A stretch of 33,158 nucleotides of DNA from Hippea sp. (GCA_015486955.1 WFQR01000169.1:1-33158), one strand, 5' to 3'. Numbered from the stretch's first letter, positions 347 to 29,384 are shown. Numbers and translations: made by a program. Notes: generated by a model from the sequence alone, not told the origin.

Positions 347-1654
347 TCATGCCACCATCACCCGTTCTACCCAATTGTTATTCCTCCTTATAAGTATGGT
401 TTGTTTCAAGGGAACTTGTTTATAACTCTTACCTGCCAACCGTATGTAGTTGCCGTTTATGTCTTGGATGTAAGCATAGCTTCCGCTGGTGAATCCAGAA
501 ATAAACCCAACCTGTCCGTCTATTTTCACCTTATCCCATAAGCACCAAAGCTTTCCGTCTTTAGTTCTAACCTGTTTTGTGTTCTTTGAATTTCTCTTGG
601 CTTCTGTGTTGGGATTGGTTCTTCCTTTTCTCGGTGTAGCTTCGTGAAGACTGCGTTTTTTCTTCCTAACCTGTCTGATGATTGTTGTAGTGTTTATGTC
701 TTTTGGGTTAGTGAAACCTGTCATCGCTACAGCATCGTTGGCATGAGTTTTGGGTAATCCTATCTTGTTGCGGTGAATCTTAGTCAAATAGCCGTAGGTG
801 AATTTCACTCTATCTTTGAGTAACGCTTTGAGTTCCTTAATAAGTTGCAACCTGAATGAGTTTAGATAAGCAGGCTCTTTGTAGAGTTTAGGTTTTTTCA
901 GTTTAGCCATCAATTTGGGATTGCGGTGGATTTTCTCATGGCACTTTCTATGCAGAAGGGCAAGGTTGTCGGGTCTGTCTGTTCCACCCTTGCTTCTTGG
1001 GATAATGTGGTGTATTTGCCACCCGTTGCCGTTTCCACCGTATCCTTTTCCACACAACTGGCATTTCCCATTCTCCCGTGCAAGAAGATACTCCAATACA
1101 TTTGCATAACCGCAGAGGTTGCCTTTTTGATATTCTTCTCCTTCAACATCAGGGTTTTGTAGCTTTTGAGTATCAAAACGAGCTATCTCAACAATAACCT
1201 CAGGGTCAGGCAAGAATTTAGTTAACCTCTCTATCCACCTAACTGTGTGTTCGAACCTTGCCCTAACTGACGGAGGAAGCCAGCCCTCTGGTCTGCGTCG
1301 ATTAAGAAAGCGTGGCTTTCTATAAGGTGTTTTTCTGTATCTCCTGAACCTGCGGTATTCCCTGCGTTGAAGCAGTAACTTTGAAATATCCCTGCGAAGC
1401 CTTATCTCGCCTTTTTCAACAACCTTCCCGCCCAGTCCGTTGTCAACCACTATGGCAAAACCCATAGTAGTTCCTGTGTCAAACCCTACTTTGACTGGCT
1501 GAGTGTAGTGTGTAGTCTTATACAGCAGTTGGATGGTAAAAGGTCTGCGACAGACTACCCTTGCCAGTCCTTTCTTGAGAAGCCTTCTCACCTTCCCAAA
1601 CCTTCTGGTTGGCATCAGCGGTTTACCTTCCTCACTAATCACAAAAACCACCAT
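347..1654 (-). CDS. iscB: IscB RNA-guided endonuclease (RRXRR/PLMP domain, RuvC, HNH)
   Basis: N-terminal EEGKPLMPTRRFGKVRRLLKKGLARVV; RuvC-I KVGFDTGTTMGFAIV; Arg-rich bridge helix RREYRRFRRYRKTPYRKPRFLNRR; RuvC-II VIVEIARFD; HNH CQLCGK...WQIHHIIPRSKGGTDRPDNLALLHRKCHEKIH; RuvC-III KTHANDAVA. All catalytic motifs appear present. Confidence 0.92.
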   Translation of the reverse strand: MVVFVISEEGKPLMPTRRFGKVRRLLKKGLARVVCRRPFTIQLLYKTTHYTQPVKVGFDTGTTMGFAIVVDNGLGGKVVEKGEIRLRRDISKLLLQRREYRRFRRYRKTPYRKPRFLNRRRPEGWLPPSVRARFEHTVRWIERLTKFLPDPEVIVEIARFDTQKLQNPDVEGEEYQKGNLCGYANVLEYLLARENGKCQLCGKGYGGNGNGWQIHHIIPRSKGGTDRPDNLALLHRKCHEKIHRNPKLMAKLKKPKLYKEPAYLNSFRLQLIKELKALLKDRVKFTYGYLTKIHRNKIGLPKTHANDAVAMTGFTNPKDINTTTIIRQVRKKKRSLHEATPRKGRTNPNTEAKRNSKNTKQVRTKDGKLWCLWDKVKIDGQVGFISGFTSGSYAYIQDINGNYIRLAGKSYKQVPLKQTILIRRNNNWVERVMVA

Positions 1655-2000
1655 GCGGTAAGCCTCCTTACGGAGTTATTTGCCCCTCGACCAAATTATC
1701 TGGGCTTACCATGTCCAGCCCACTGTCCCACAAAAGTGGGGCTGTTTAGAACTGGACGACAGAGCTAAGGACTGGGGCATCATCCTTAGGTGTCATGACC
1801 CAGATAATCCAGCCCCATCTTACTTGGGGCTCGGTCTAATCAACCAGTTGCCCCCGTCCCTTACGGGACAAGCCCCTTCTGTGAAGGAGGGGTGGTTGAC
1901 GGGGTTTTCCCCACTGGGGGCACTGGGCTCAGGCAGGCCATCGGGCGGGGTTCACAGATGCTCAACGAGGATTCTGAGGCGGGCTGCCTGAGCCCAGTGA
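1655..2000 (-). ncRNA. Candidate IscB omega-RNA / HEARO RNA scaffold upstream of iscB
   Basis: GC-rich, multi-stem region directly 5' of iscB. Stems include CACTGGGCTCAGGCAG(1921-1936)/CTGCCTGAGCCCAGTG(1984-1999), ATTATCTGGG(1695-1704)/CCCAGATAAT(1799-1808), AGCCCC/GGGGCT, GTCCC-TTAC-GGGAC, CCCCTTC/GAAGGAGGGG. Position matches IscB omega-RNA (HEARO). Confidence 0.8.
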
Positions 2001-3509: not shown

Positions 3510-3887
3510 ATGGGTGCAGTTAGCGATATACAGAGCTACATAGAAAAACGCTGTCAAGAGGATGAGAGGTTTAAAATAGAATACGAAGCCGTGAGGCGGT
3601 TTATGGCTTTTTTAAAAAGCAAATACAAGGGCGAAGACTTGTTGAGGGTTTTGAGAATGCTGCCGATAGACAGATACGAATACGACAAAGAAGAAAACGT
3701 TCTTTGGGTGGGTTCACTCAAGGTAAAAGGGCACAAAGTTAAGGTATGCTGGGATGATAGCGATGGCTACCCTGCCTTTTGTGGGTTTGTTGAGGATATT
3801 GAGTGTGCAAAGACACAGGGGGAGACGGTTGAGGAGCTGATAGAGAATGTGAAAGAGGTGGTGGAGCTGTGCAGGGAAGATATTTAA
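3510..3887 (+). CDS. HicB-like antitoxin-family protein (N-terminal extension, HicB-like C-terminus)
   Basis: KVCWDDSDGYPAFCGFVEDIECAKTQGETVEELIENVKEVVELC resembles the HicB partial RNase H fold. Start placed at MGAVSD rather than the upstream TTG at 3390. Confidence 0.5.
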   Translation: MGAVSDIQSYIEKRCQEDERFKIEYEAVRRFMAFLKSKYKGEDLLRVLRMLPIDRYEYDKEENVLWVGSLKVKGHKVKVCWDDSDGYPAFCGFVEDIECAKTQGETVEELIENVKEVVELCREDI

Positions 3888-6800
3888 GATAGTTCTAAAG
3901 GCCTTAGCAATCCTACCGCCTTTGTAAACACTTCTCCACCGTTATCCATCCACTTCTTTATATCACCGACTATAATCACTTCTTCTTTTGACCTTGTAAC
4001 TGCAACATTCAAAAGATTTGGCTTTCTTGTAGCCCATCTAATTGCCCCAGCTTTAGCTCCACCTAATAAAATAATTACGATTTTATTCTCTTTACCTTGA
4101 AAAGTATGAACTGTTCCTATGTTCGTCCAATTCATACCCTTAAATTTTCTCTTCACGTCATCTAAAGTGATTCCTACAAAAGGAGATATTATATAGACTT
4201 TATCTAATTTGTCTTGGTACATTTTTCTCAGTATCTCAACAACCGCATTAACCTCAACATCAGACACATTCTTAAACCATGTTCTTGCCTCGTCAGTGTT
4301 AACGTTGACAAAATACCCTTTACCCGTAGCCTTTTTATCATCCGCACCGTGTATCATTGTGTTACTGTAGGCAATTGCATTGGCAATACTGAACGCAGGG
4401 TCTTTGCACCTGAAATGCACTCTTAATGGTATCCCTATTGGTATTTTAAATCCGTCCCTTTCTATTACTGCCTGTATGCTTGAAGCTCTATCCGCAAGAA
4501 CTTGAACAGACGTATCTATAAAGCCGTCTTCCGAGCTTGAAATTTGTATAGCTCTCTCACGCCCAGGCACTATTAAACCTACGTTAACTCCCAATTCACT
4601 TGCTATTCGCTCCACTTCTAAGGCTTTCTCAAGTGCGTTTCTCAAACTTTCTGGTATGGTGATAACAGGCTCAATCTGCAATGGATCACCCACTATTACT
4701 GCCCTTTTTGCCCTCATAAGTAAGCCAGTCGCATAATAGGGTATTCCTTGCCCAGCCTCGTCCACAATTACAAATCCAATGGAGTTGGGTTTTGTAAGAG
4801 CAGCAAACATGTTGGTTACAGAGTGAAACGTGGTGGATATAACAGGTGTTACAAACGCAAAGGATGTCCATGAATTTACAATAGCCTCAACGTCCTTATC
4901 TGTTATCTCCTCAGTTATATTGCTACCCTTGTTTAAGATACTAAAAAACAAGTCTATATTATGCTTAAACTCTTGGCGGTACTTCAGGACAAACGCATAG
5001 TGTAACCTTAAGGCTTTAAAAAACAGTTCTTTACGTTTTTCTTCCAAAGACCTTACGGCGTACGGCGTAAACAACTGCTTTTCTTTATCTGGGTAATTGT
5101 AAATAACCTCTGGCAAAGAAAGAAAATCAAGTTCCTGACTATTGATATTATCAATTCCAAGTTTCTCGAATAGGTTAATTAAGTTGTTCATTGTGGTTGA
5201 TTTTGCTTTGTATAGCCTTTCTTTTACGAGCAGTTGACTCTTAAGTTCGTTTAGATTGTTCTCTATTTGTTGGCCTTGTTCGATTAAAGCATCCAAATCT
5301 TTTTGCATTTGTGAGTATTCATTTACAATGCTCTTCACAAAAGACAGATTTTTAAGAATAGGTATTTTTGATAAACTGAAAGCCATCCTGTTGGCCTGTT
5401 TGTAGTTAGCTATGCCATTCTTTTTATCGTTTATCAACGTCGTTACCTCGTTTTTTTCACCTTCAAGCATGCGAGCTTTACTGCTCAACTGGGTGTATTC
5501 ATCTCTAATAGTCGAGTATTGGCTTTCTTCAGTATTAAAATAGTCTTTAATTGAAAAAGTGTTGGCTTCTATCATTTCATCAAAAGGAATCAGCTTTTTT
5601 ATTTCCTCAATTTCATTGTAAAGTTCAAGGAAATCTTTGGCATACTGCTTTAAATCTATGCTGTTTATTAGTAATCTCAACCTATCGCCTCTTTCTTTGG
5701 CCTGTTGGGTTTCCTCTTCGGAGGAGTAATCCACTTTCCAAAGGTATTTGAGCATAATCCCAAGTTCCCTGACAAATCCCAGATTGACCGACCTCAAGTT
5801 TTCTTTTTTGCCTAAAGCCACTGACACAGGACTCCAGCATTCATCATCAGCCAGGTTTTTAAAACACTCAGCAAAATTAGTAAAAATCGGCTCATTAAGG
5901 ATTTTATCTCTATATTCTGACACCTTATCCATTAATGGGAGCTCTTTCGAGACGTTTTCCACTGCCTTGTTATTACTTGAAGCCACCACAATATTGTAGT
6001 CACACAGCTTATCATTGGTAAACCTGTAAAACTTTCCAAAAGTAGAACTGTCCTCGCTGAGTATAGCATCATCGCCGAGTATGTCGTTTGCAAGATAGTA
6101 TGCTCGTTGGGTTACTATGTTAGCCACTATATCCCTGAGTATCGTTGTTTTTCCTGTTCCTGGCGGCCCGTTAACACTCACAATACCATTTTCGTTGCCT
6201 TTTAGAAATCTCCTATACACCTCTGACAGGGCTAAAGCTTGGTTAAAGAAAGATTTAGCCCAAGCTTCTGTTAACCACCTTGCAGGTGGGATGTTTTCTG
6301 GCTTAAGGGTTTGAGCTTCAGTGCCCTCACTAAGCATCTTTCTGTTGGGGTTGCCAAGAATATATTGTTTTAGGGTTTCACTTTCATTGAAATGAAGTTT
6401 AGCAAGATCGAGTTCACTCACAAAGAATGATGGTGGCTCATTGATTTCTTTATAAATTTCACCTAAAAATTTTTCATTTTCGACACTCTTTCCTGTTGAA
6501 ACAATGGGATAATCAAAATCATTTAAAGAGAAAAACTTGTCCAGTTTCATCCAGTTGAGGAAGTGTTCTACCATTTCCTTTGCTACTCTTTCATTTAACC
6601 CTTTTTGCTTCCTTTCGTAAACATTTGGCAGAAGTCCTGTGGATATAACGCCTATTTCAGAAGCAATCAATTTCATTGTGGTATCTGTGGTAAGCAGTAT
6701 GACATTGTCAGGAGAGTCGTACTCAGCCACATATTTAGCAAACCTGACAACTGCTTTATCTGTTTCGTCGAGTTTGCTATCTGGCTTAAGTTTTCTGTGT

Positions 6801-7765
6801 AATCCATCAAAATCAACTTTGCTTAATTCGCTGCTAAACAACTCATGAGAGAAAGATACAACTTTCACATGCTTACCGCTTATTCTATCTCCTTTGGGTG
6901 TGTATTCGTTTGTTCTTATTATTTCGTTAAGCCATATTAACCCTTGTTTTGCGAGATCTTTTCTTTTTTCTCTTTCTTCTTTACTTCCCTTACCACCTTC
7001 GTCTTTTAAAGTATCAAGCTCTTTAAGAACCTTATCATACACCCCTATTACAAAACTGTAATTGCTTTGCTTTAGGTAGTATAAGTAAGGGTTTTCTTTT
7101 CTTTTCCAAAATTCCGCAAGCTTCATAGCAAAGGAAGTATCAATTATCCAATAAGCGTAGGTGTTGTAATAGGTTTTAAACCTCTCTGCAAAGCGGTTGT
7201 TAAACAGCTCTATTTGTTTCATCATTTCGTTGGCACTAAGTAGGGTATCCTCTTTATTTAAAATTTTTGATACGTAAAACCAGAAGGGCTTAACCCTTAC
7301 TGCAAGCTGAGGTGTTTTCTCGCCGTCTTCGTTATTGTCTTGGCTTTTTCTATCATCTAAAATATCTTTTGGTAACCCCACAATCTTGTTATCAGAATTT
7401 GCCACAATCGAAAACAAATACATCCACTCATTTTCAATCTTATCGTAATTTTCTACATTAAACTTATCCGTGTTTATACCAAAAAATTCCAAAATCTTAT
7501 TGATTACTTTTTTCTTTCTGATAACTCCTATATGACTGCGACAAAAAAATGTTCTCTTTCTGTCAGCGGTATTCAGTTTTCCTCTAAATGATTTGAAAGC
7601 CTGATATGGTTCTGTATATATGCCGTTGCCTCTTTCTAATCTCTCATTTATCATTCTAACTTTTGCTTCTTCACCTTGCTCGTTGAATAAATCGACTTCT
7701 GGTAAATTCTGGAACACCTCGAAAACTTGCCAGAAATCGAGTAACTTTTTGATTGGTTCGCTCAT
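3884..7765 (-). CDS. Large SF1 (Upf1-like, AAA_11/AAA_12) helicase, 1293 aa
   Basis: Walker A VNGPPGTGKTTILRDIVANIV; motif II VIVDEAGQG; GDPLQIEPV; TVHTFQGKENKIVIILLGG; LNVAVTRSKEEVIIVGD; SD AAGGAGGCAGAGAAAATG. Confidence 0.88.
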   Translation of the reverse strand: MSEPIKKLLDFWQVFEVFQNLPEVDLFNEQGEEAKVRMINERLERGNGIYTEPYQAFKSFRGKLNTADRKRTFFCRSHIGVIRKKKVINKILEFFGINTDKFNVENYDKIENEWMYLFSIVANSDNKIVGLPKDILDDRKSQDNNEDGEKTPQLAVRVKPFWFYVSKILNKEDTLLSANEMMKQIELFNNRFAERFKTYYNTYAYWIIDTSFAMKLAEFWKRKENPYLYYLKQSNYSFVIGVYDKVLKELDTLKDEGGKGSKEEREKRKDLAKQGLIWLNEIIRTNEYTPKGDRISGKHVKVVSFSHELFSSELSKVDFDGLHRKLKPDSKLDETDKAVVRFAKYVAEYDSPDNVILLTTDTTMKLIASEIGVISTGLLPNVYERKQKGLNERVAKEMVEHFLNWMKLDKFFSLNDFDYPIVSTGKSVENEKFLGEIYKEINEPPSFFVSELDLAKLHFNESETLKQYILGNPNRKMLSEGTEAQTLKPENIPPARWLTEAWAKSFFNQALALSEVYRRFLKGNENGIVSVNGPPGTGKTTILRDIVANIVTQRAYYLANDILGDDAILSEDSSTFGKFYRFTNDKLCDYNIVVASSNNKAVENVSKELPLMDKVSEYRDKILNEPIFTNFAECFKNLADDECWSPVSVALGKKENLRSVNLGFVRELGIMLKYLWKVDYSSEEETQQAKERGDRLRLLINSIDLKQYAKDFLELYNEIEEIKKLIPFDEMIEANTFSIKDYFNTEESQYSTIRDEYTQLSSKARMLEGEKNEVTTLINDKKNGIANYKQANRMAFSLSKIPILKNLSFVKSIVNEYSQMQKDLDALIEQGQQIENNLNELKSQLLVKERLYKAKSTTMNNLINLFEKLGIDNINSQELDFLSLPEVIYNYPDKEKQLFTPYAVRSLEEKRKELFFKALRLHYAFVLKYRQEFKHNIDLFFSILNKGSNITEEITDKDVEAIVNSWTSFAFVTPVISTTFHSVTNMFAALTKPNSIGFVIVDEAGQGIPYYATGLLMRAKRAVIVGDPLQIEPVITIPESLRNALEKALEVERIASELGVNVGLIVPGRERAIQISSSEDGFIDTSVQVLADRASSIQAVIERDGFKIPIGIPLRVHFRCKDPAFSIANAIAYSNTMIHGADDKKATGKGYFVNVNTDEARTWFKNVSDVEVNAVVEILRKMYQDKLDKVYIISPFVGITLDDVKRKFKGMNWTNIGTVHTFQGKENKIVIILLGGAKAGAIRWATRKPNLLNVAVTRSKEEVIIVGDIKKWMDNGGEVFTKAVGLLRPLELS

Positions 7766-10456: not shown

Positions 10457-11386
10457 TTATCCTTCTCTGAGCGGGGTGTTATATGTTATTTCTCTTTTTT
10501 TGGGATTATAGTCTATTCCTATAGAACGTAGCAAAAATATATTTCTCTTTAAACCTTCCGATATTTTGTTAACAAATTTATCATAATCCTCAAATTCGAA
10601 AGCATCTTGTTGGGTTGCAAGTTTTTGTGTGTTTCTGTAGGCTTCCTCAAGCAGGCTATCCACTTTAATTTTGACTGGAAATTTAACGCTAAGTAATAGC
10701 CATCTAACGAGCCACCTTACCTCAAAGTCTCTAATACGAAAGATTTTTTCTATAAAAGGCTTATATAATTCGTAAATTCCTATAGGTAAGACATACTTAA
10801 AGTAATCTCTGTTAAAGAAAAAAACATATTCTTTTTCCTCTTTATCGTAGAAAGAAGAATCAAACATTCCAAACATTATTGTTTTTTTATCTTTTGTATA
10901 GATAAAATTAATCGACATCATTAAGTCAAAGCATTCTTTGATTTCTGATTGAGGATAATTACAGAAACTTGCAAATTTTTCTAAATCTTCCTCAGATAGA
11001 ATTGCACCAGCTTCTTTTGTTTTTTTATCAATAGCTGTATTTTGTAAAATTAAGTCAGTAAGATCGTTGACACAATCTAATGTTATTATAGAATTAACCT
11101 CAAGTTTCTCCTTTGTTCTTTTGTCTTCTCGTAAGCAAATATAACTTACATTAGCAGACACAGACTCATTATCCTGTTTTTCTTCGCCAAAGTCGGGATT
11201 GTTAGTAAAGTCATCCATTATACCACCCTCTATGTCACTTTCCTCATCATTCTCGTCAATTCGGAACATCCCAAAAAGCATAGACATTCTCTCTTGTAGT
11301 GACATTTTGGAGAAAATCTGTTCAATTAATTCTTTTTCTTTTTGCCTTTTTCTTCTTACATCATCAATTGTGATTTCTTTGGACAT
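10457..11386 (-). CDS. Hypothetical protein (~309 aa) directly downstream of CRISPR array 1
   Basis: Likely ATG at 11386 with SD AAGGAGGTGACTTGT; the track start at 11395 is a GTG within the SD. No family recognised. Confidence 0.6.
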   Translation of the reverse strand: MSKEITIDDVRRKRQKEKELIEQIFSKMSLQERMSMLFGMFRIDENDEESDIEGGIMDDFTNNPDFGEEKQDNESVSANVSYICLREDKRTKEKLEVNSIITLDCVNDLTDLILQNTAIDKKTKEAGAILSEEDLEKFASFCNYPQSEIKECFDLMMSINFIYTKDKKTIMFGMFDSSFYDKEEKEYVFFFNRDYFKYVLPIGIYELYKPFIEKIFRIRDFEVRWLVRWLLLSVKFPVKIKVDSLLEEAYRNTQKLATQQDAFEFEDYDKFVNKISEGLKRNIFLLRSIGIDYNPKKREITYNTPLREG

Positions 11387-11417
11387 ACAAGTCACCTCCT
11401 TTGACTTTATTTTTGGT

Positions 11418-12298
11418 TTTTTAACCTCTTATAGTAGGTTTGAAATGACACGTTAAACGGATCTGATCCAACAAACCGCTGGGCCTTTTAATCTCTTATA
11501 GAAACTTTGAAACTCGCCACAGAACCTACAGTGGGCGGTGGAGATAGTGCTTTTAACCTCTCATAGTAGGTTTGAAACCAATCTTAGCAACCTCAACCGC
11601 CCTCTCCTCAAGAAACTTTTAATCTCTCATAGTAGGTTTGAAACGTCATATATCCAATATGTATTCGGAGTTATATATCCCCTTTTAACCTCTCATAGTA
11701 GTTTTAAAACTTTTCGCACCCGTGAGGTCTCGGAGTTGATTTAGGACTTTTAACCTCTCATAGTAGTTTTAAAACACCGCGATACGACTCAGTGGGGGAA
11801 ATGTTCCTTTACTTTTAATCTCACATAGTAGCTCTAAAATGGGTGTTCCTTTTTTCACCCAAATGTTTCGAAACTTCAAACTTTTAATCTCACATAGTAG
11901 CTTTAAAACCACTACGGCGATCACATGAAGGTTGAAGTCAGGGGCACTTTTAATCTCACATAGTAGCTTTAAAACTCCGCATGGGCTTCCGCCTTGATTT
12001 TATCCAGCTTTCTTTTAACCTCATATAGTAGTTTAAAACGCGTAAGCGTCTTTAAGCACGTCGTAAACAAACTTACTTTTAACCTCACATAGTAGTTTTA
12101 AAACCACAGAAAAAGCGAGAGAGGAGCTAAGAGAGATCACTTTTAACCTCACATAGTAGTTTTAAAACAACCTCAGGTAGATGACGAGCCTTAGGCAAAA
12201 CAACCTTTTAACCTCACATAGTAGTTTTAAAACTTTTCTTTATCACGCCCCGCACAGCCTAACCACCCACTTTTAACCTCACATAGTAGTTTTAAAAC
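11418..12298 (-). CRISPR. CRISPR array 1, 14 repeats (29 bp), leader on the right
   Basis: Consensus (+) CTTTTAA[T/C]CTC[T/A]CATAGTAG[T/C]TTTAAAAC, spacers ~34-38 nt. Leftmost repeats degenerate (11418, 11486); rightmost repeats uniform. Confidence 0.97.
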
Positions 12299-12396
12299 CC
12301 ATTTTACCCATTTCCATAATTGCTTTCATTATAACAACTATAGAAATTCTCCTTTCAGAAAATCCCTTAAAAATTCTCGAACTTCCAGTAGTGCAT
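12299..12396 (-). promoter_or_regulatory. CRISPR leader of array 1
   Basis: CCATTTTACCCATTTCCATAATTGCTTTCATTATAACAACTATAGAAATTCTCCTTTCAGAAAATCCCTTAAAAATTCTCGAAC is homologous to sequences right of arrays 2 and 3. Confidence 0.85.
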
Positions 12397-13086
12397 TTAG
12401 CAAACTTCCACTATCAACTCCCCAAAACCGTAGCCGATCCTGTAGCCCACAAATCTTGGAATTAAGTAATTTGAAATTACCCTGCACCTAACGGCTGGGA
12501 AGTGAATGTTTACATCCTCTTTTGGGTAAGGCACATAAAAATACTTAATGTCGCTGACATCCACTTTTAACTGCTTCCACTGAGATTTTGGAACTTCAAT
12601 GCCTAAATAGTGTTTTATTTGGTGAAAGACCGAATCCACAATAAAGTCCTTGAGAAATGCCCTCAGCTTTTCCTCGTTGCCCTCCACATCCTTTTTAATC
12701 TCTTTAGTTTCCTCACTGTTGCTTGCTAAGATGATCGGCGTTCTTGTTTTGTAAACTGCAAATGCTGAGGCTATTTTTGGCATGGCGAAGTTTTCATTTC
12801 TTAAACTGGCATTTATTACCTTCAGCGTCTTTGTCTTTGTTTTTATCTCTTTCTTGTAGGCAGCATTTTTAAGATAGTTCATCATTTCAATGTCATTTGT
12901 GTAGTTAACCACCTCAGCATACCCACTGGTTGTAGGCCATGTGTAAATGAGAACTGGCGGAATGTGTCTGTGCCACAATATTTTTTCTGTGTATTCTTCT
13001 CTCTTGTTAACAGAGGCAAGGAAGTTTCTAATAGTTCTCGGAGTTAAGTCCTCAGCAAAACCGTCTAACTTTAATACCAACTTCAT
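12397..13086 (-). CDS. cas6: Divergent Cas6/Csf5-like crRNA endoribonuclease candidate
   Basis: Between two arrays in a cas locus; ~230 aa; AFAVYKTRTPIIL and C-terminal FVGYRIGYGFGELIVEV resembling a Cas6 glycine-rich loop. SD AAAGGAGGTG. Confidence 0.65.
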   Translation of the reverse strand: MKLVLKLDGFAEDLTPRTIRNFLASVNKREEYTEKILWHRHIPPVLIYTWPTTSGYAEVVNYTNDIEMMNYLKNAAYKKEIKTKTKTLKVINASLRNENFAMPKIASAFAVYKTRTPIILASNSEETKEIKKDVEGNEEKLRAFLKDFIVDSVFHQIKHYLGIEVPKSQWKQLKVDVSDIKYFYVPYPKEDVNIHFPAVRCRVISNYLIPRFVGYRIGYGFGELIVEVC

Positions 13087-13098
13087 AAAACACCTCCT

Positions 13099-14254
13099 TT
13101 TTTAATCTCTTATAGTGGTTTTAAAACTATACTCCGTGCAGGGGGAACATATATCCCATGCGGTTTTTAACCTCTCATAGTGGTTTTAAAAACTTGCAGG
13201 ATCGATTACGCCCAGATAGCGGAAAAGGCTTTTTAACCTCTTATAGTGGTTTTAAAACCTTCGAGTGGCAAAACTCATCGGGACTGCTCTTCCGCCAGCC
13301 ACCTCACTACTTTTAGCCTCTTATAGCAATCTTAGGGAAAGATGACTTACCCTATACCGCCGAAACCGACGGTTTTTTTAATCTTTTATAGAAGGTTTAA
13401 AGTCCTCAATACTCTTGCGTATTGTGTGGGTCTTATAAACTTTTAATCTCTTATAGCAGATTTAAAACGATGAGGCTGATAACGAAAGAGATAACTGGAA
13501 TTTCTTTTAATCTCTCATAGTAGCTTTCAAACGCGTTATTGAGCTTCTAACATCGCTGGCACTCGCCGTTACTTTTAATCTCTCATAGTAGCTTTAAAAC
13601 TCGCGTCTGTCATGGACATGCTAACGTCGGTTGTCCCCTTTTAATCTCACATAGTAGGTTTGAAACTTCCAATCGTCTCTACAAGGCAACACATTACCTT
13701 GCTTTTAATCTCTTATAGTAGTTTTGAAACATGTTTATACCCCTGAGAGCGATTCTGGGCGTTTTTCTTTTAATCTCTCATAGTAGCTTTGAAACGAAAG
13801 AACAAGAAGAAAAACTGAAAGAATACCCTGTCGCTTTTAATCTCTTATAGTAGCTTTAAAACATTGCCCCTGCGAGTGTCGTGTCGGTTTGGGATAGAGC
13901 TTTTAATCTCTCATAGTAGTTTTAAAACGTGGTTGCTTATTCTCGGGCTTGCTCTCGGGGGAACTTCTTTTAATCTCTCATAGTAGTTTTAAAACATATA
14001 CATGAAAGGAGGCTTACACTATGAAGAAGTTCTTTTAATCTCTCATAGTAGTTTTAAAACATGTCTAACCTGTTTTGCCTAACGGCTGGCACAGGCTTTT
14101 AATCTCTCATAGTAGTTTTAAAACTACTCAACTGTTATCCAGATTCTCTGAGAAAAATATCTTTTAATCTCTCATAGTAGTTTTAAAACACAAAAGCAAA
14201 AGCGCGGTTTCTGGTCTCGGCTGTTCTTTTAATCTCTCATAGTAGTTTTAAAAC
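13099..14254 (-). CRISPR. CRISPR array 2, 18 repeats (29 bp), leader on the right
   Basis: Repeats from 13099-13127 to 14226-14254; several degenerate leader-distal copies (e.g. CTTTTAGCCTCTTATAGCAATCTTAGGGA near 13310, TTTTTAATCTTTTATAGAAGGTTTAAAGT near 13375); leader-proximal six copies identical. Confidence 0.97.
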
Positions 14255-14463
14255 CCATTTTTCTTGTCTCCATAATTGCTTTCATTACAACAACTACAAA
14301 GACCCCCCTTCTTAAAAATCCGCTCAAAAATTCTCCAACCCCCAGTCGTGCATTAGCCACTATACTATCGTCCATCGATCCAACGACTATCAACTATCAT
14401 CTATCTTCCCCACCAACCACCCCACTATTAACACCCAGAATGGGCTATGTAAAAGATCGTGCC
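14255..14463 (-). promoter_or_regulatory. CRISPR leader of array 2 plus extended homologous flank
   Basis: CCATAATTGCTTTCATTACAACAACTACA...CCACTATACTATCG...CAACCACCCCACTATTAAC...ATGGGCTATGTAAAAGATCGTGCC, shared with 19870-20083. Confidence 0.85.
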
Positions 14464-14478
14464 TAACCTAAACTGGCA

Positions 14479-15960
14479 CTAATTTAAGTAGAAGTGCAAC
14501 ATTGACCTAACGCCCAAGTCGTATTTCCTGAAGAAGGCATGTAGCCTTTCCATCATTTCTAAGCTTTCTTTCGCTTTGTTTCTTATTGGAAGCAAGCCAG
14601 TGGTTTTGCTTATGGTTCTTGAAGTTAAAAGCGTCTTTGTCGCCTCACGCCCAGTTAGTTTAGCATAGTCCTCAAGCAAAGCTTTCGCCTCAACCAACGC
14701 CTCATCCAACAACTGCTTATCAATGTAAAGCGTATTTGAATCGTCCCTGCAAACAACGGGCATAAGGCTTGATATGGTCGCTTTGCATCCGCCTTTGTAG
14801 AAAATGTGCTGCCTGTTGCTGCTCAATCTCCACCCTACATGGTAAGGCAGCCTGTCCCCTTTTAGAAAATCAGTTATCAGCTCTTTATACTGTCCCCATT
14901 CATCACCGTTATACTTTCTCCACTCATCAGGGTGGCTCGACCTGCTGACTTTCCTTGCCATAGCCCAGCCGTCCTCATAGAACACCGCCATACCAGCTTT
15001 CCTGTAAACTTCGTCTAAAGCCTTTAGCGATTTCACACAGTCAAAGCATATCACGTTGCCTTCCTGTAGTTCTTGAAAGTCTGTAAACTTACTGCTTGCC
15101 ACGTCTTTTATTCGGCTTGCACGGACACCTTTGTTCACGTCTTTGCCACAGAAAACACACCTACCTTGAGTTATGTGTTTCTCTGTTTTTTCCGCAGTTT
15201 TCTTTGGCAGTTCAAAGTGTTTACCCATAAGCATTGAAGGAGTAATTGTCTCTTCAGGAATAACCACGTTTCCCTTTGCTGGTGATTTGTCCTCAAGCTC
15301 AACAAGTGCCGTGTGCGGCATGAAGCAGGGAACAACCCCATGTTTGAGCCAGTAGGGTGGAGTGGGCCTGTAGTAGGCAACCCTGTCCGTTTCTACCTCT
15401 TCTTTCCACTCAAGCACAGATAAAGGTTTAGAGGGAGTGTAGGGGTTGAGGAAGAAGCCCCTATCGTCGGCATCCTCAACCTCAACACCCTTAACAATTC
15501 CCCAACCGTATTTGCCTTTCTTTCCCAAATACTTCACATTGGACACAAGGCTCTTGAGCTTGTCTGGATCGGCGGATATGTAGAAATGCACCTTTGAAAT
15601 GGTGAGGCGTTCATAGTAGTTCAGCAGGTTTTTGTAAGTTCCCGATCCACCTTTTATCTGGTGGTTGTATTCAAACACGCTGTTGCCCATAATTCTTCTA
15701 AACCAGTCATCACTTAAACTCCTCTTTAGTGCATCACCGTAAGGCAAAACCGCCTCGTCGTCATCGACATACCATATTGACCCAGATAAGGTGTTGTTTC
15801 TCTTTTCTATGAAGTCCGTTTCCTTGTCTTTTAATGGATCATGGCTACTGTCGTAAAAACTCCCGTAAATCAGCGAGAGCAGTACTGCATCAATTGTTGT
15901 AAATCTATGCAAAAGCGGTGGCGTGGCAAAGTGAAAGGTTACTTTCAAGGGCCTAATCAT
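14479..15960 (-). CDS. Csf3 (Cas5-like)-Csf1 (Cas8-like, zinc finger) fusion of a type IV-A-like CRISPR-Cas system
   Basis: N-terminal Csf3-like MIRPLKVTFHFATPPLL...YLGKKGKYGWGIVKGVEVED...YRPTPPYWLKHGVVPCFMP; C-terminal Csf1-like zinc finger CVFC(~15148-15159)...CFDC(~15036-15047) and GWRLSSNRQHIFYKGG. Single uninterrupted ORF next to csf2 and dinG. Confidence 0.75.
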   Translation of the reverse strand: MIRPLKVTFHFATPPLLHRFTTIDAVLLSLIYGSFYDSSHDPLKDKETDFIEKRNNTLSGSIWYVDDDEAVLPYGDALKRSLSDDWFRRIMGNSVFEYNHQIKGGSGTYKNLLNYYERLTISKVHFYISADPDKLKSLVSNVKYLGKKGKYGWGIVKGVEVEDADDRGFFLNPYTPSKPLSVLEWKEEVETDRVAYYRPTPPYWLKHGVVPCFMPHTALVELEDKSPAKGNVVIPEETITPSMLMGKHFELPKKTAEKTEKHITQGRCVFCGKDVNKGVRASRIKDVASSKFTDFQELQEGNVICFDCVKSLKALDEVYRKAGMAVFYEDGWAMARKVSRSSHPDEWRKYNGDEWGQYKELITDFLKGDRLPYHVGWRLSSNRQHIFYKGGCKATISSLMPVVCRDDSNTLYIDKQLLDEALVEAKALLEDYAKLTGREATKTLLTSRTISKTTGLLPIRNKAKESLEMMERLHAFFRKYDLGVRSMLHFYLN

Positions 15961-15983
15961 TTTCTACCCCCATGCACTATTTT

Positions 15984-17279
15984 TTATCTCTTCTTGCTTT
16001 TGCTTCCCTTCTCCCCGTCATTGACCTCCAGATACCTCAGCGGTAGGGTAAATGTCTCATAATCCATATTTTCAAGCCATTCATTGAAGGCTTCGACCGC
16101 ATCGCTTTCAAGTTTATCCTGCGGGTTTATGTAAAGATCTGGCAAGCCAAAGATGTTTGCGTCAACGCTCTTGCCTATTAGTAGGTTTATTCCGTTTCTC
16201 GAGACAGACAATTTAACCCTTCCAAATCCTCTTTTTTCAAAAGACCCAAATGCAAACCTGTAAACATTGCCATCAGCATCGACTAACGACTGTTGAGCGA
16301 GCACTCTCAAACTCTCAAGAAGCAAGCCGTATTCAACAAGAGACAAAGGCTCTTTTGTGGATATTTCACCGCTCAAGATTGACCCTGCGGGAATATAATA
16401 AGTGTCAATTATGTTTTGTATGGTTTGTTTCTTTTTGTTGCCACCACCGTTGTCTTGACTGTCATCCGTCTCCGCTTCGGTGTTTGCTGTGGTGCTTTTT
16501 GTTTCCTCTCTTTCTTTCTTATCCTCTCCCACAAACTTTAACCACCTTTTCCTGCTCTCTTCACTAAGGAATAATTTGGCAAATACACTGCCTTTAACGA
16601 TGTCATCCACCACAATCACAACTTCGCTGTTGTAGTATCTGCTTGTGTATGTGTAAAATGGGCTTAATTTATTTTTATTCGCTTCCTCTTTGTTTTTATC
16701 TTTGTCTTTTGTATCCTTCAGATCAGCCCACACTCTCAATGTCTCGTATATCGCTTCCCTGTCTTCAAGGTCTATGACAGGGTTAGACGGCATTAGATCG
16801 GTGATTATCAGCTTTGAAGGAATATACAAGGTCATGCCGTATAAAGAGGCAAAAGGTATCCTGCTTGTCACTTCCTTAATGGCAAGGTATTTTGCATACT
16901 CACCGCTTCCCTGAGGGTCAGAAATCCTCATAACATTTCCACCGCCAACGCTGTATAAGAAAAACAAGGAGAGCACGTCCGCATTTTTTAGTCCGCCTTC
17001 ATTTCCCTTGCTTGCTTCCTCAAGCTTACGCAGGTAACCTTTATCCCAAGCCTTTGAGAAGATTAAGTAAGTGCCTGCACGCCTCAACATACCGCCAAGA
17101 CCGTTCGAAGAAAAAATGGGAATATCAACAAAGACTGTGTTCAAACCTACACTTCTCAAGTCATCAGGAATGTCTCTCAATACCACCGTTCTACTTTTAA
17201 GCTGTGCTTCCCTGTCAACTTGTGCTAAAGGGGTTAGCAACTCAGCCTTAATGTCCAACACTCCTGCAAACTTACTCAT
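15984..17279 (-). CDS. csf2: Csf2 (Cas7-like backbone subunit) of a type IV-A-like system
   Basis: RAMP-like TVFVDIPIFSSNGLGGMLRRAGTYL; YIPAGSILSGEISTKEPLSLVEYGLLLESLRVLAQQSLVDADGNVYRFAFGSFEKRGFGRVKLSV; located between dinG and csf3-csf1. Confidence 0.82.
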   Translation of the reverse strand: MSKFAGVLDIKAELLTPLAQVDREAQLKSRTVVLRDIPDDLRSVGLNTVFVDIPIFSSNGLGGMLRRAGTYLIFSKAWDKGYLRKLEEASKGNEGGLKNADVLSLFFLYSVGGGNVMRISDPQGSGEYAKYLAIKEVTSRIPFASLYGMTLYIPSKLIITDLMPSNPVIDLEDREAIYETLRVWADLKDTKDKDKNKEEANKNKLSPFYTYTSRYYNSEVVIVVDDIVKGSVFAKLFLSEESRKRWLKFVGEDKKEREETKSTTANTEAETDDSQDNGGGNKKKQTIQNIIDTYYIPAGSILSGEISTKEPLSLVEYGLLLESLRVLAQQSLVDADGNVYRFAFGSFEKRGFGRVKLSVSRNGINLLIGKSVDANIFGLPDLYINPQDKLESDAVEAFNEWLENMDYETFTLPLRYLEVNDGEKGSKSKKR

Positions 17280-17296
17280 CTCAAAACCTCCTTTTT

Positions 17297-19180
17297 CTAA
17301 AGTTTTATTGTTCTTATTTCTGAGCTTCTCTCCTCAATGAAGGGTTTTAGCTTCTTAAACCTATCCCCATCGTAAATTCTGTGATCAAGCACATAAAACT
17401 CGCCTTTGTCCTCTGGCGTCCTCAACAGCCTTCCCATCCACTGCCTAAAATTGATGATCATTTCCCCCTCATAAAGGGAGTAGTTTTTACTGTTGAGCCA
17501 CTTGAGTGTGATAACAGGAAACGGCAGCCTTGCTATGTAGAGCTTTTCAAGTTTTTTGCCAGGCAGGTCAACGCCTATGCCGTAATGCCTTACGGCGATG
17601 AGCAGCTTTACGTGCATTTTCTCAAAAATTTTTAAAACGCTTCTCATGGTTTTGTCTGGTGCAGAAACTATCATCTTCTCTTTGTCAATGTGTCTTAAGA
17701 GGGCATTGTATATCATATCAGCCTGTAGGTAACTGCCAGTCAACACAAGCGATTTCTTATCGTCAAAAGTTTTAGCCACTATATCCGCTATGTAATTTGC
17801 CCACTCTTCCAGTTTTGCTTTGTCCTCTTCAGTCATATCGTAAACGCTTCCCGTTTTGGGTGGTTGAGGTATTTTGTCTTCGGGTAAATCTTTAGGTGGT
17901 AAATAGGTAATTTGGTTTTTGTCCCATAGATAGGATACAGGATAAAGGAATACGCCCATATTTTTGGGGATAGAAAGGGTCAGCTTTGCGGATTCTTCCT
18001 GCTTGTTTCTGTTCACGTAAACCGTTGCGGACATGCCGATAATTTTGGGCTTCACTTTCCAGAAGTTCACTTGCAGTTGTTTTTTTGCATCCACCCTTGA
18101 AAACTCAATCGACGGATAGCCTTTACTCGGTGAGTATTTTAAATAACCTAAATTGCCTGTTCCTTTTGTAACGCTCATCAATTCCTCTATCTCCTGAACA
18201 AGGGCGTAGAAGTATGGGACTTTAATGTTCTCTTGAAAAACCTTATTCAAAGCATTTTTTAGAGGATTTAGTAGGGCTCTGGTGGTGAATTGCTCTTTGT
18301 TTATGGTTTCCCTCAAATCTCTGACAAACCGCTTATACTCATCGCTATCATACTTAAAGTATGCACCAATCCTTTCTTTTCTTGAGTGTGTCTTCGTGAA
18401 AGTGAACATCTTTGTGGATAAACTGGTGAGGATTTGAGTTAGCTTTTTTGATATATGCCCATTTGCATGATCCAAAAAGTTCGATATTAACCATGCTAAC
18501 CTAAAAGGTGAAAAAGAGCGTGTAAACAGCGTGTCAGATACCAGCGGTATGGTGTGCACCTCGTCAAGGATAATGTGATACTTGTCTATGTTTTCCTTAA
18601 AGGAAGCCGACGAAGTGTTTTTGAAGAGAAAATTGGATAGAAGGTAAAAATGGTTGGTCACGGCAATGTCGTAGTCATCAAAAGTCCCAGCCTGCTTTAT
18701 TCGTTCATCAGCCTTAATAAGCTCCCTTAAGGGTTTTTCCATATCTGGGTCTTTTAAGGTCTCTTCTATAAATGTATCCACAAGCCACCATACTCGCCCC
18801 TCAAGAGTGTCTTTGTTCTTTTCCATCTCCTCTATGTATGCATTGATGCCATCGCAGAATTGAGATAAGCTGTCTTTGTTTTCCTTTAATTTGTTGATGT
18901 CTATGTAGTTATCCTTACCAAAAACAACCCCTACCTTTGCATTAGGGATCAGCTTTTTTAAGGTGCTCTCAAGCTCATAAGCAAGTTTATTGGTGCTTGT
19001 GGAAACAATAACTCTGTTTCCGTCAAGCAGGTTTTTAGCTAACTTGCCTATTACGTATGATTTCCCAAAACCTGTAGGGGCTTCCAAGAGAATGGGATGG
19101 TCGTTTTTGCTGTAGGCGTCTAACAGTATTCTAACCACAGAGTTTTGGACTCTTTCCCTTTCTTCAATTGAGTACCCCAT
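17297..19180 (-). CDS. dinG: DinG-family SF2 helicase (Csf4-like, CasDinG)
   Basis: Walker A ILLEAPTGFGKSYVIGKLAKNLL; VTNHFYLLSNFL; DEVH box ILDEVHTIP; motif VI NFRQWMGRLLRTPEDKGEFYVLDHRIY; SD AAGGAGGTGTTTT ATG. Confidence 0.88.
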   Translation of the reverse strand: MGYSIEERERVQNSVVRILLDAYSKNDHPILLEAPTGFGKSYVIGKLAKNLLDGNRVIVSTSTNKLAYELESTLKKLIPNAKVGVVFGKDNYIDINKLKENKDSLSQFCDGINAYIEEMEKNKDTLEGRVWWLVDTFIEETLKDPDMEKPLRELIKADERIKQAGTFDDYDIAVTNHFYLLSNFLFKNTSSASFKENIDKYHIILDEVHTIPLVSDTLFTRSFSPFRLAWLISNFLDHANGHISKKLTQILTSLSTKMFTFTKTHSRKERIGAYFKYDSDEYKRFVRDLRETINKEQFTTRALLNPLKNALNKVFQENIKVPYFYALVQEIEELMSVTKGTGNLGYLKYSPSKGYPSIEFSRVDAKKQLQVNFWKVKPKIIGMSATVYVNRNKQEESAKLTLSIPKNMGVFLYPVSYLWDKNQITYLPPKDLPEDKIPQPPKTGSVYDMTEEDKAKLEEWANYIADIVAKTFDDKKSLVLTGSYLQADMIYNALLRHIDKEKMIVSAPDKTMRSVLKIFEKMHVKLLIAVRHYGIGVDLPGKKLEKLYIARLPFPVITLKWLNSKNYSLYEGEMIINFRQWMGRLLRTPEDKGEFYVLDHRIYDGDRFKKLKPFIEERSSEIRTIKL

Positions 19181-19247
19181 AAAACACCTCCTTACAATTT
19201 GTTCTCACTATCTATACGCACAAGCCCCTTTTTGTTATGGAGTTTTG

Positions 19248-19869
19248 CTTCCAACCTCTTATAGAAGCTTTGGATTTCTAATAACCTACAGGGTATTTCT
19301 AATAACCTACACTTTTAGCCTCTTATAGAAACTTTGAAAACACAGGTGAATTTGAACGAAAGTCTTTATCACTGCTTCTTTTAATCTCTTATAGTAGGTT
19401 TGAAACCAATCTTAGCAACCTCAACCGCCCTCTCCTCAAGGAACTTTTAATCTCTCATAGTAGCTTTAAAACGTTGTTTCCTAAAGGCGTGGAGCTTTTC
19501 TTTTCATGTCAGCACTTTTAATCTCTCATAGCAGTTTAAAAACAAAAAGGAGCTATTTTGGGGTTCAATTTGCAAGTTCTTTTAATCTCTCATAGCAGCT
19601 TTGAAAACAGATTTGTTAAGGGAGGGTAAGCTATGAGTGCAAAACTTTTAATCTCTCATAGTAGTTTTAAAACGTTGGTGTCGATGAACTTGGCTCATCT
19701 TTAATCAGAACTTTTAACCTCACATAGTAGTTTTAAAACTTTTATCTCTGATGTGCTTAGCCGTCGTTTTCGCTTTTAACCTCACATAGTAGCTTTAAAA
19801 CTATGCTGTGATGTTGCTGCCAGTACTGATAAAACAACGTCTTTTAACCTCACATAGTAGCTTTGAAAC
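19248..19869 (-). CRISPR. CRISPR array 3, 10 repeats (leftmost highly degenerate), leader on the right
   Basis: Repeats at 19248 (degenerate), 19312, 19378, 19444, 19515, 19579, 19645, 19711, 19773 and 19841-19869. Confidence 0.96.
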
Positions 19870-20083
19870 CCATTTTACCTATTTCCATAATTGCTTTCAT
19901 TACAACAACTACAGAAACACTCCTTTCAGAAAATCTCTTAAAAATTCTCCAACCTTCAGTCGTGCATAACCACTATACTATCGATCCATCGATCCAACGA
20001 CTAACGACTAACGACTATCTTCCCCTCCAACCACCCCACTATTAACGCCCTAATGGGCTATGTAAAAGATCGTGCCATTGCAG
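19870..20083 (-). promoter_or_regulatory. CRISPR leader of array 3 plus extended flank shared with array 2
   Basis: CCATTTTACCTATTTCCATAATTGCTTTCATTACAACAACTACAGAAAC... and CCACTATACTATCGATCCATCG...ATGGGCTATGTAAAAGATCGTGCC. Confidence 0.85.
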
Positions 20084-23375: not shown

Positions 23376-24233
23376 ATGTCAGTGTACGATATTATTCTGG
23401 ATAAGATTTTAAAAGCTATGGATAAGGGTATTGTGCCTTGGAAGTCCCCCTATACTGCAAGGGGGCATAGGAACATTGACGGGCGTTATTATCATGGCAT
23501 TAATGTCTTTTCGTTAAATATTGCCTGTTGGATTTATAATTACAAGACGCCGATATGGTTAACTTGGAAGCAGATCTATCAAAGGGGTTGGCATCTTAAA
23601 AAGGGTGCAAAGGGCGTCAGAATTATATTTTTTAAGGAAGTGGAAAAGGAAATTATAGATGAAAATGGAAATATTGAAACTGAATTGATCCCTGTTCCTC
23701 GATATTATCATGTTTTTAATTTAGAATGTCTCAAGGAGTATGATTCAATAAAATCCCAGTTTGAGAATGAGCCTGTACCGCCTATGGATAACCTATTGAA
23801 CAATTACATTAAAAACTCAGGTGTAAGTCTAATACATGCTTCTTATGGGGTGTCTTTCTATGAGCCAAAAAGGGATAGAATAGTCATGGCACCCGTGAAA
23901 AAGTCTATGTATTATCAAGTTTTATCACATGAGATAGTGCATAGTACTGGGCATAAAAGTCGCCTGAATAGATTAGATGATTCTTTCTTTGAAAGCAAAC
24001 AAAAATACTCATTTGAGGAATTAATAGCTGAGATAGGGAGTGCTTTTCTGCTTGTAAAAACAGGTAAAACAATCGATTATGAAAATACTGCCTCTTATTT
24101 GGCTGGTTGGGCTGAGTGGCTCAAAGGGCAGAAAAAAACTGCTCTCTTTAGGGCCGCTAAAAAGGCCCAAGAGGCAGTAGAGTATGTGGAAAAGGTTGCT
24201 TTTTCTAAAGGCAAAAATAAGAAAATAGCTTAA
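23376..24233 (+). CDS. ArdC-like antirestriction protein (ssDNA-binding N-terminal domain plus zincin metallopeptidase)
   Basis: IVPWKSPYTARGHRNIDGRYYHGINVFSL...TWKQIYQRGWHLKKGAKGVRIIFFK; HEIVHSTGHKSRLNR (HExxH). Confidence 0.9.
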   Translation: MSVYDIILDKILKAMDKGIVPWKSPYTARGHRNIDGRYYHGINVFSLNIACWIYNYKTPIWLTWKQIYQRGWHLKKGAKGVRIIFFKEVEKEIIDENGNIETELIPVPRYYHVFNLECLKEYDSIKSQFENEPVPPMDNLLNNYIKNSGVSLIHASYGVSFYEPKRDRIVMAPVKKSMYYQVLSHEIVHSTGHKSRLNRLDDSFFESKQKYSFEELIAEIGSAFLLVKTGKTIDYENTASYLAGWAEWLKGQKKTALFRAAKKAQEAVEYVEKVAFSKGKNKKIA

Positions 24234-24884: not shown

Positions 24885-25451
24885 ATGAGAAAAGTTTTTG
24901 ATGCTTTGATTCTTACCATACTCGTGAGCATCGTGGTCACTTTTCCGCTAACATCCTTTTCCGCCACTTACCAAGCCGTCGTTCTCAAAATCACCGACGG
25001 TGACACGGTTTGGGTAAAAATGTACGGCAAAAGAGTTAAGCTAAGGCTTTTGGGCATAGACACGCCTGAGGAATACCCGTCAAGGAAGATGGACAAGGAC
25101 ATAGAGATGTGCCACACAACCTACAAACAGATGAGAAAACTTGGCTTGCTTGCTACAAAGCACGCAAAGACGATGCTTTATAAAGGAGAGCATGTGACAG
25201 TTATAACCAAAGGCAAAGGATACTACGGCAGGACGCTTGCCTTTATTATCCTGCCCGATGGAACAAACTACAACGAAAAGGAAGTGGCTGACGGGTATGC
25301 GTGTGTGTATAAGTGGCACGGGCATAAGAGCAGGGAATTGAGTTGGGGAGAGTTTGAGAAGCTGGAGAGGTTGATGGAAAAAGCAGAGAAAGAAGGAAAA
25401 GGGCTTTGGGATGAGTACAAAGGGATAATGGAGTGTTTGTGTGATTATTAG
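24885..25451 (+). CDS. Secreted thermonuclease (SNase family)
   Basis: Signal peptide; VLKITDGDTVWVKMYGKRVKLRLLGIDTPEEYP...LATKHAKTMLYKGEHVTVITKGKGYYGRTLAFIILPDGTNYNEKEVADGYACVYKW. Confidence 0.93.
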   Translation: MRKVFDALILTILVSIVVTFPLTSFSATYQAVVLKITDGDTVWVKMYGKRVKLRLLGIDTPEEYPSRKMDKDIEMCHTTYKQMRKLGLLATKHAKTMLYKGEHVTVITKGKGYYGRTLAFIILPDGTNYNEKEVADGYACVYKWHGHKSRELSWGEFEKLERLMEKAEKEGKGLWDEYKGIMECLCDY

Positions 25452-29289: not shown

Positions 29290-29384
29290 AAAAACGCTGT
29301 TTTTGCTAACTTTGCTTTGGGGTGGAAAAAAGTGAAATTTGGGATTATAAAATTATAAAAAAAAGATCGTTTGGAGGTGACAAG

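What the first reader, a model, noticed from the sequence alone, without database searches (positions are those of the whole stretch)
11386..19869. Each CRISPR array reads directly into a protein gene (array-as-5'-leader architecture, three times)
All arrays are transcribed leftwards from right-hand leaders. Array 3's distal end (19248) lies 67 bp before the dinG ATG (19180); array 2's distal end (13099) touches the cas6 SD (ATG at 13086); array 1's distal end (11418) is about 31 bp before a 309-aa ORF (ATG ~11386). The pattern leader-array-gene repeats three times, so effector expression may be coupled to pre-crRNA transcription and processing, and Cas6 cleavage would set the 5' end of the dinG and cas6 mRNAs.
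Basis: partly seen in the sequence, partly recalled or inferred. Interest (0 to 1): 0.75.

Follow-up and report, generated by a model that had tools for sequence, protein, structure and literature searches.

The report
CRISPR arrays inside a cas operon
On a plasmid-like piece of DNA, three CRISPR arrays each run directly into a protein gene (two of them CRISPR genes). The same array-inside-the-operon layout recurs in distant relatives of this rare type IV-E system, so guide RNAs and the enzymes that use them are probably made from the same transcripts.

Summary
Three arrays on the minus strand (14, 18 and 10 repeats) have leaders on their right. They end 31, 12 and 67 nt before the start codons of a 309-aa ORF, cas6 and dinG. 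The genes form a type IV-E CRISPR system on a conjugative-type element (TraH, ArdC).

The layout is not a local oddity. Among nine non-redundant IV-E relatives, seven (four lineages with under 46% Csf3-Csf1 identity) also have co-directional arrays inside the cas operon. Six have one directly upstream of cas6; another is upstream of dinG and another upstream of csf3-csf1. Two relatives (C. concisus, one Campylobacterota MAG) and two type IV-A-like controls lack internal arrays.

No promoter-like site lies between array and gene in the window; five of nine minus-strand sites lie in the leaders. Co-transcription is therefore likely.

Cas6 cutting the terminal repeats is plausible for cas6 and the 309-aa ORF, and weak for dinG, whose last repeat is badly decayed (19/29). 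A regulatory role is inferred, not shown; no RNA data exist here.

The parts
19870..20076 (-). leader of array 3 (homologous to leaders 1 and 2)
   Evidence: (families D6, D7, D11); promoter-like sites at 19900-19872 and 20066-20038
19248..19869 (-). CRISPR array 3, 10 repeats; last repeat 67 nt before dinG ATG
17297..19180 (-). dinG (Csf4-like helicase, type IV-E)
   Evidence: PADLOC Csf4_3_IVE E=1.8e-56
15984..17279 (-). csf2 (Cas7-like backbone)
   Evidence: PADLOC Csf2_0_IV E=5.5e-15
14479..15960 (-). csf3-csf1 fusion (Cas5-Cas8-like), hallmark of IV-E
   Evidence: PADLOC Csf3-Csf1_0_IVE E=1.1e-47
14255..14463 (-). leader of array 2
   Evidence: promoter-like sites 14453-14424 and 14393-14364
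13099..14254 (-). CRISPR array 2, 18 repeats; last repeat abuts the cas6 ribosome-binding site
12397..13086 (-). cas6 (type IV-E pre-crRNA endonuclease)
   Evidence: PADLOC Cas6_1_IVE E=2.4e-26; conserved His and C-terminal Gly-rich loop in alignment
12299..12396 (-). leader of array 1, filling the gap after the cas6 stop codon; contains TGTTATAAT (extended -10-like)
   Evidence: promoter-like site 12329-12301
11418..12298 (-). CRISPR array 1, 14 repeats; last repeat 31 nt before the 309-aa ORF
10457..11386 (-). 309-aa ORF of unknown family, with AGGAGGTG ribosome-binding site
   Evidence: no convincing match in Pfam, PADLOC, NCBIfam or PHROGs, none in plasmids by tblastn

Best explanation
This is a type IV-E CRISPR system on a conjugative-type element whose arrays are built into the cas operon. 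SHOWN from sequence: three co-directional array copies, each with its own homologous leader, sit immediately upstream of dinG-csf2-csf3/csf1, of cas6 and of a 309-aa ORF. Co-directional arrays inside the operon recur in most IV-E lineages found. INFERRED: RNA polymerase starting in a leader (and, in relatives whose arrays have no leader room, at the operon promoter) transcribes the array and reads on into the next gene. Cas6 then cuts within the repeats, releasing crRNAs and leaving the downstream gene on a separate mRNA. When the terminal repeat is intact, as before cas6, that mRNA would begin with the 8-nt repeat handle joined almost directly to the ribosome-binding site. The simplest consequence is that guide RNAs and their processing and effector proteins are made together from a compact plasmid locus. 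Whether cleavage also tunes cas6 translation or mRNA stability (feedback) is open. The three arrays in the window arose by duplication of one leader-array unit.
For: Array and gene coordinates and strand. IV-E identity. Promoters: no consensus promoter within 150 nt upstream of cas6, dinG or the 309-aa ORF; 5 of 9 minus-strand promoter-like sites fall in the three leaders. Relatives: arrays between csf2 and cas6 in L022, L024, L027, L029, L030 and Sulfurimonas indica L041; between csf3-csf1 and dinG in L025; between cas6 and csf3-csf1 in L041. Gaps to the downstream start codon are 22-82 nt, and upstream gaps are as short as 31 nt (L024) and 23 nt (L041), leaving no room for a leader promoter. 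In L041 the strong promoter-like site (TTGACA-17-TATACT) lies upstream of csf2, before a solitary repeat-like element (25/36; shuffle maximum 22) and both arrays. All internal arrays point the same way as the operon, in 5 lineages. Type IV-A-like controls have their arrays at the operon end.
Against: No transcript data. The consensus promoter scan is weak, and total hits equal the shuffle mean. Repeats are AT-rich with little predicted structure, so Cas6 cleavage of terminal repeats cannot be judged by folding. The dinG-proximal terminal repeat is decayed. L011 and L040 manage without internal arrays. Array-before-cas6 is not significantly preferred over other operon gaps: by hand, about p=0.1 with 4 informative lineages. 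Absence of terminators on the operon strand is not significant (1 against 3.4 expected).
Confidence: 0.66

Rival explanations
1. Historical accident. A leader-array unit copied itself into gaps of a compact plasmid operon; because arrays grow only at the leader end, the old end simply stays next to whatever gene lies downstream. Read-through happens, but the layout has no regulatory role.
For: Arrays 1 and 3 share a spacer and all leaders are homologous, so duplication did occur. One array precedes a gene with no known CRISPR link (309-aa ORF). The preference for cas6 is not statistically strong. Two lineages lack internal arrays.
Against: Internal arrays recur in 5 of 7 lineages with different gene orders, always co-directional. 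The last three repeats before cas6 are better preserved (25-26/29) than the two before them (22 and 19/29), opposite to usual end decay; a fused older array would also explain this.
Confidence: 0.45
2. Each gene has its own promoter lying in or just upstream of the terminal repeat or last spacer, so array and gene transcription are independent.
For: All three terminal repeats carry TATAAG, close to a -10 box. Cannot be excluded by sequence.
Against: No -35/-10 pair passes the consensus scan in the 150 nt upstream of the three genes. TATAAG also occurs in older mid-array repeats. The gap before cas6 is 12 nt.
Confidence: 0.15
3. Cas6 autoregulation. The terminal repeat is a cis-regulatory site in the cas6 (and perhaps dinG) mRNA; Cas6 binding or cutting limits its own synthesis and matches it to pre-crRNA supply.
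For: An array lies directly upstream of cas6 in 4 lineages despite different gene orders. In the window the cas6 ribosome-binding site abuts the repeat. In L041 csf2, cas6 and csf3-csf1 each follow a repeat or array.
Against: Preference for cas6 not significant. Arrays also precede dinG and a non-cas ORF. L025, L011 and L040 have no array upstream of cas6. No expression data.
Confidence: 0.25

Closest known systems
Type IV-E CRISPR-Cas (DinG, Csf2, Csf3-Csf1 fusion, Cas6)
   Same: All four proteins match type IV PADLOC models, three of them IV-E models, and the locus is on a conjugative-type element.
   Different: Three arrays, each leading into a gene; Csf3-Csf1 only about 23-31% identical to the other IV-E fusions found. 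The founding IV-E paper is not in the searchable library, so whether it remarked on internal arrays could not be checked.
Type IV-A CRISPR-Cas
   Same: DinG helicase and Csf2 backbone. IV-A acts by transcriptional interference with DinG (PMC11519345).
   Different: In the IV-A-like controls the cas genes are contiguous and the array lies beyond the operon end. In IV-A3 a single array lies upstream of the cas genes with a 65-bp leader (PMC7434947).
cas-autoregulating mini-CRISPRs (Creg/CreR; from general knowledge)
   Same: Repeat elements placed near cas genes that could adjust cas expression.
   Different: Those act through a spacer partly matching a cas promoter. No window spacer matches a cas promoter; the best off-array match is 16/17 nt in recT.
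Solitary repeats as RNA anti-CRISPRs (PMC10651486)
   Same: The single repeat-like element before csf2 in L041.
   Different: Here it lies inside the host CRISPR operon, not in a phage.

Membership tests
Type IV-E CRISPR-Cas | Csf3-Csf1 fusion protein | tested here: met
   PDLC01726 Csf3-Csf1_0_IVE E=1.1e-47; second half matches Csf1 models
Type IV-E CRISPR-Cas | IV-E DinG (Csf4) | tested here: met
   Best model Csf4_3_IVE E=1.8e-56, ahead of IV-A models
Type IV-E CRISPR-Cas | Csf2 (Cas7) | tested here: met
   Csf2_0_IV E=5.5e-15; aligns over its length with C. concisus Csf2
Type IV-E CRISPR-Cas | IV-E Cas6 | tested here: met
   Cas6_1_IVE E=2.4e-26; conserved residues in 10 homologues
Type IV-E CRISPR-Cas | No adaptation genes | tested here: inconclusive
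   No Cas1 anywhere in the genome, the window included, but the assembly is only 82% complete
Type IV-E CRISPR-Cas | Carried by a plasmid-like element | tested here: met
   TraH, ArdC, SNase, RecT, SSB in the same contig; complete plasmid not reconstructed
Type IV-A CRISPR-Cas | Separate csf1 and csf3 genes | tested here: not met
   Fused in one 493-aa ORF
cas-autoregulating mini-CRISPR (Creg type) | Spacer with partial match to a cas promoter | tested here: not met
   No such match in the window
Operon with array and cas genes on one transcript | Read-through RNA spanning array and gene | not testable with these tools
   No RNA data; indirect sequence evidence only

The most novel reading that the evidence does not exclude
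Type IV-E operons use repeats as internal processing and feedback sites. Cas6 cuts one polycistronic RNA into crRNAs and separate cas mRNAs, and cleavage or binding at the terminal repeat next to the cas6 ribosome-binding site limits Cas6 production. Cas protein synthesis would then be set by pre-crRNA processing.
Probability: 0.2. Interest if true: 0.75.

Novelty: new variant of a known kind. Interest (0 to 1): 0.52.

Why it matters
CRISPR arrays are usually treated as separate transcription units beside the cas operon. In IV-E they appear to be part of the operon itself, in lineages as far apart as this window's element, a class known mostly from environmental MAGs, and Sulfurimonas. If transcripts confirm it, crRNA supply and cas protein supply are tied at the RNA level. 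IV-E, for which I found no functional study in the papers I could search, then gains a clear testable prediction: Cas6-dependent 5' ends on cas6 and dinG mRNA.

Tried and rejected
Viral-contig scans with Csf3-Csf1, DinG and the 309-aa ORF found no relative. A genome-contig scan with the window protein alone found none; an alignment query then found ten.

The 309-aa ORF could not be identified: no family in four libraries, no plasmid relative, AlphaFold model poor (pLDDT 47), so no fold search was made. Cas6 has no close solved relative by sequence.

Repeat stem conservation was not informative. A relic repeat before cas6 in L025 was suspected by eye but did not pass the scan and is not claimed. 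Spacers pairing with gene starts: 2 of 39 against 0.5 expected, not significant. Terminator depletion: not significant. No phage record matches the spacers. Two of the four records fetched as controls (L058, L061) turned out not to be usable type IV loci with an array.

Full report
WHAT IS THERE. The 29-nt repeats occur only in this contig of the genome, in one orientation. Manual register gives array 1 at 11418-12298 (14 repeats), array 2 at 13099-14254 (18) and array 3 at 19248-19869 (10). Leaders on the right are homologous: about 98 nt for array 1 and about 200 nt for arrays 2 and 3. Repeats decay towards the left end. Reading leftwards, the order is leader 3, array 3, dinG, csf2, csf3-csf1, leader 2, array 2, cas6, leader 1, array 1, 309-aa ORF. 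The upstream genes ssb, a DsbD-like ORF and recT are on the same strand, so no divergent gene interrupts. Gaps from the last repeat to the start codon are 67, 12 and 31 nt for dinG, cas6 and the 309-aa ORF. The 12 nt before cas6 are AGGAGGTGTTTT.

WHAT SYSTEM IT IS. PADLOC models name a type IV-E system: DinG, Csf2, Csf3-Csf1 fusion and Cas6. There is no cas1 in the 82% complete genome. ArdC, SNase and TraH lie about 3-9 kb beyond the operon's right-hand end, so the locus is on a conjugative-type element, as usual for type IV. Spacers match other mobile elements of the same genus: array 1 spacer 3 exactly, in an integrase-bearing contig of the same assembly; array 2 spacer 2 at 35/36, in a Toprim-AAA primase-like gene; array 3 spacer 5 at 32/33. 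The 5' flank is CCA in these three, which fits the orientation.

IS THE LAYOUT RECURRENT. Searches for the IV-E fusion protein gave, besides the C. concisus plasmid pICON (L011), six distinct loci in one class, known here only from MAGs, plus Sulfurimonas indica (L041) and a Campylobacterota MAG (L040). Arrays were located independently of genes. Array directly upstream of cas6, same strand: L022, L024, L027, L029, L030, L041. Upstream of dinG: L025. Upstream of csf3-csf1: L041. A solitary repeat-like element 29 nt before csf2 in L041 matches 25/36 (shuffle maximum 22). Gaps to the start codon, in the order just given for cas6, then dinG and csf3-csf1: 22, 23, 53, 22, 76, 82, 41 and 49 nt. Gaps on the other side can be as small as 31 nt (csf2 to array, L024) and 23 nt (cas6 to array, L041); in L025 an array starts 8 nt after the cas6 stop. 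L040 has no array in the fragment and L011 has one array beyond the operon end. By Csf3-Csf1 identity below 46% there are seven lineages counting the window, five with internal arrays. Two type IV-A-like plasmid loci carry their arrays at the operon end.

IS IT MORE THAN CHANCE. Arrays in the window cannot be counted three times, because they are copies: leaders are homologous and arrays 1 and 3 share a spacer. Across lineages, co-direction in five of five has probability about 0.03 under random orientation (hand calculation). Preference for the gap before cas6 over other operon gaps is suggestive only (about 0.1, by hand, four informative lineages). Recurrence of internal arrays is therefore solid, while special linkage to cas6 is not proven. 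Operon-end arrays in L022, L024, L025 and L030 lie 99-223 nt from the next gene, unlike most of the internal ones.

HOW IT PROBABLY WORKS. No promoter-like pair lies in the 150 nt before cas6, dinG or the 309-aa ORF; five of nine minus-strand sites lie in leaders. In L041 the strong site precedes csf2 and both arrays lie downstream of it. So array and gene most likely share transcripts. Cas6 is conserved and looks intact, and the terminal repeats before cas6 and the 309-aa ORF keep 26 and 23 of 29 positions and 7 of 8 handle bases, so cleavage there is plausible. The one before dinG (19/29, GTTGGAAG) may not be cut; the next one (21/29) might be. The last three repeats before cas6 form a better preserved subgroup than the two before them, which fits either selection on them or fusion of an older array. 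Folding predicts little repeat structure, so cleavage is inferred from conservation only.

WHAT IS KNOWN. IV-A systems silence transcription with DinG (PMC11519345). IV-A3 has one array with a 65-bp leader, described as upstream of the cas loci (PMC7434947). A review describes leaders as carrying the array promoter; the passages read there say nothing about operon-internal arrays (PMC10013973). The founding IV-E paper is not held, so prior notice of this layout in figures cannot be excluded. I found no paper describing array read-through into cas6 in type IV.

VERDICT. Observation confirmed. Interpretation partly supported: co-transcription likely, Cas6-set 5' ends plausible for two of three junctions, regulation untested.

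Noticed in passing
window 347-1900 (-): IscB gene with its HEARO/omega RNA (RF02033, 147.9 bits) directly upstream: a second RNA-guided system on the same element.
   Followed up: partly
window 3884-7765 (-): 1293-aa protein with PIN domain and AAA_11/AAA_12 superfamily 1 helicase motifs, function unknown, possibly defence.
   Followed up: no
window 13099-13403: The last three repeats of array 2 (CCACTAT..., ending AAAAA) are better preserved than the two before them (22 and 19/29), against the usual decay towards the array end.
   Followed up: partly
window 11579-11615 and 19407-19443: Arrays 1 and 3 share a spacer (34 nt identical), so one array was copied from the other or from a common ancestor.
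   Followed up: yes
L055 (G000:C33), L056 (G009:C192), L057 (G010:C92): Protospacers in mobile elements of the same genus, with 5' CCA flank in three of three good matches; a possible motif for type IV-E.
   Followed up: partly
window 12299-12340 and homologous leader positions: Leader 1 contains TGTTATAAT (leaders 2 and 3 TGTTGTAAT), like an extended -10 box, about 30 nt before the first repeat.
   Followed up: partly
L022, L024, L025: Two arrays per locus with different repeats that share only the 3' part (such as GGTTAAAA); one Cas6 may process two repeat types.
   Followed up: no
L041 7379-7414: Solitary repeat-like element between the csf2 promoter-like site and csf2 in Sulfurimonas indica.
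   Followed up: partly
window 23376-24233, 24885-25451, 29322-30908 (+): ArdC anti-restriction protein, a staphylococcal-nuclease-family protein and TraH (F-type conjugation) on the right of the window.
   Followed up: no
L022 10875-11213 (-): Small predicted membrane protein between csf2 and the internal array; in L024 csf2 ends with the same C-terminal residues, KSNQEEE.
   Followed up: no
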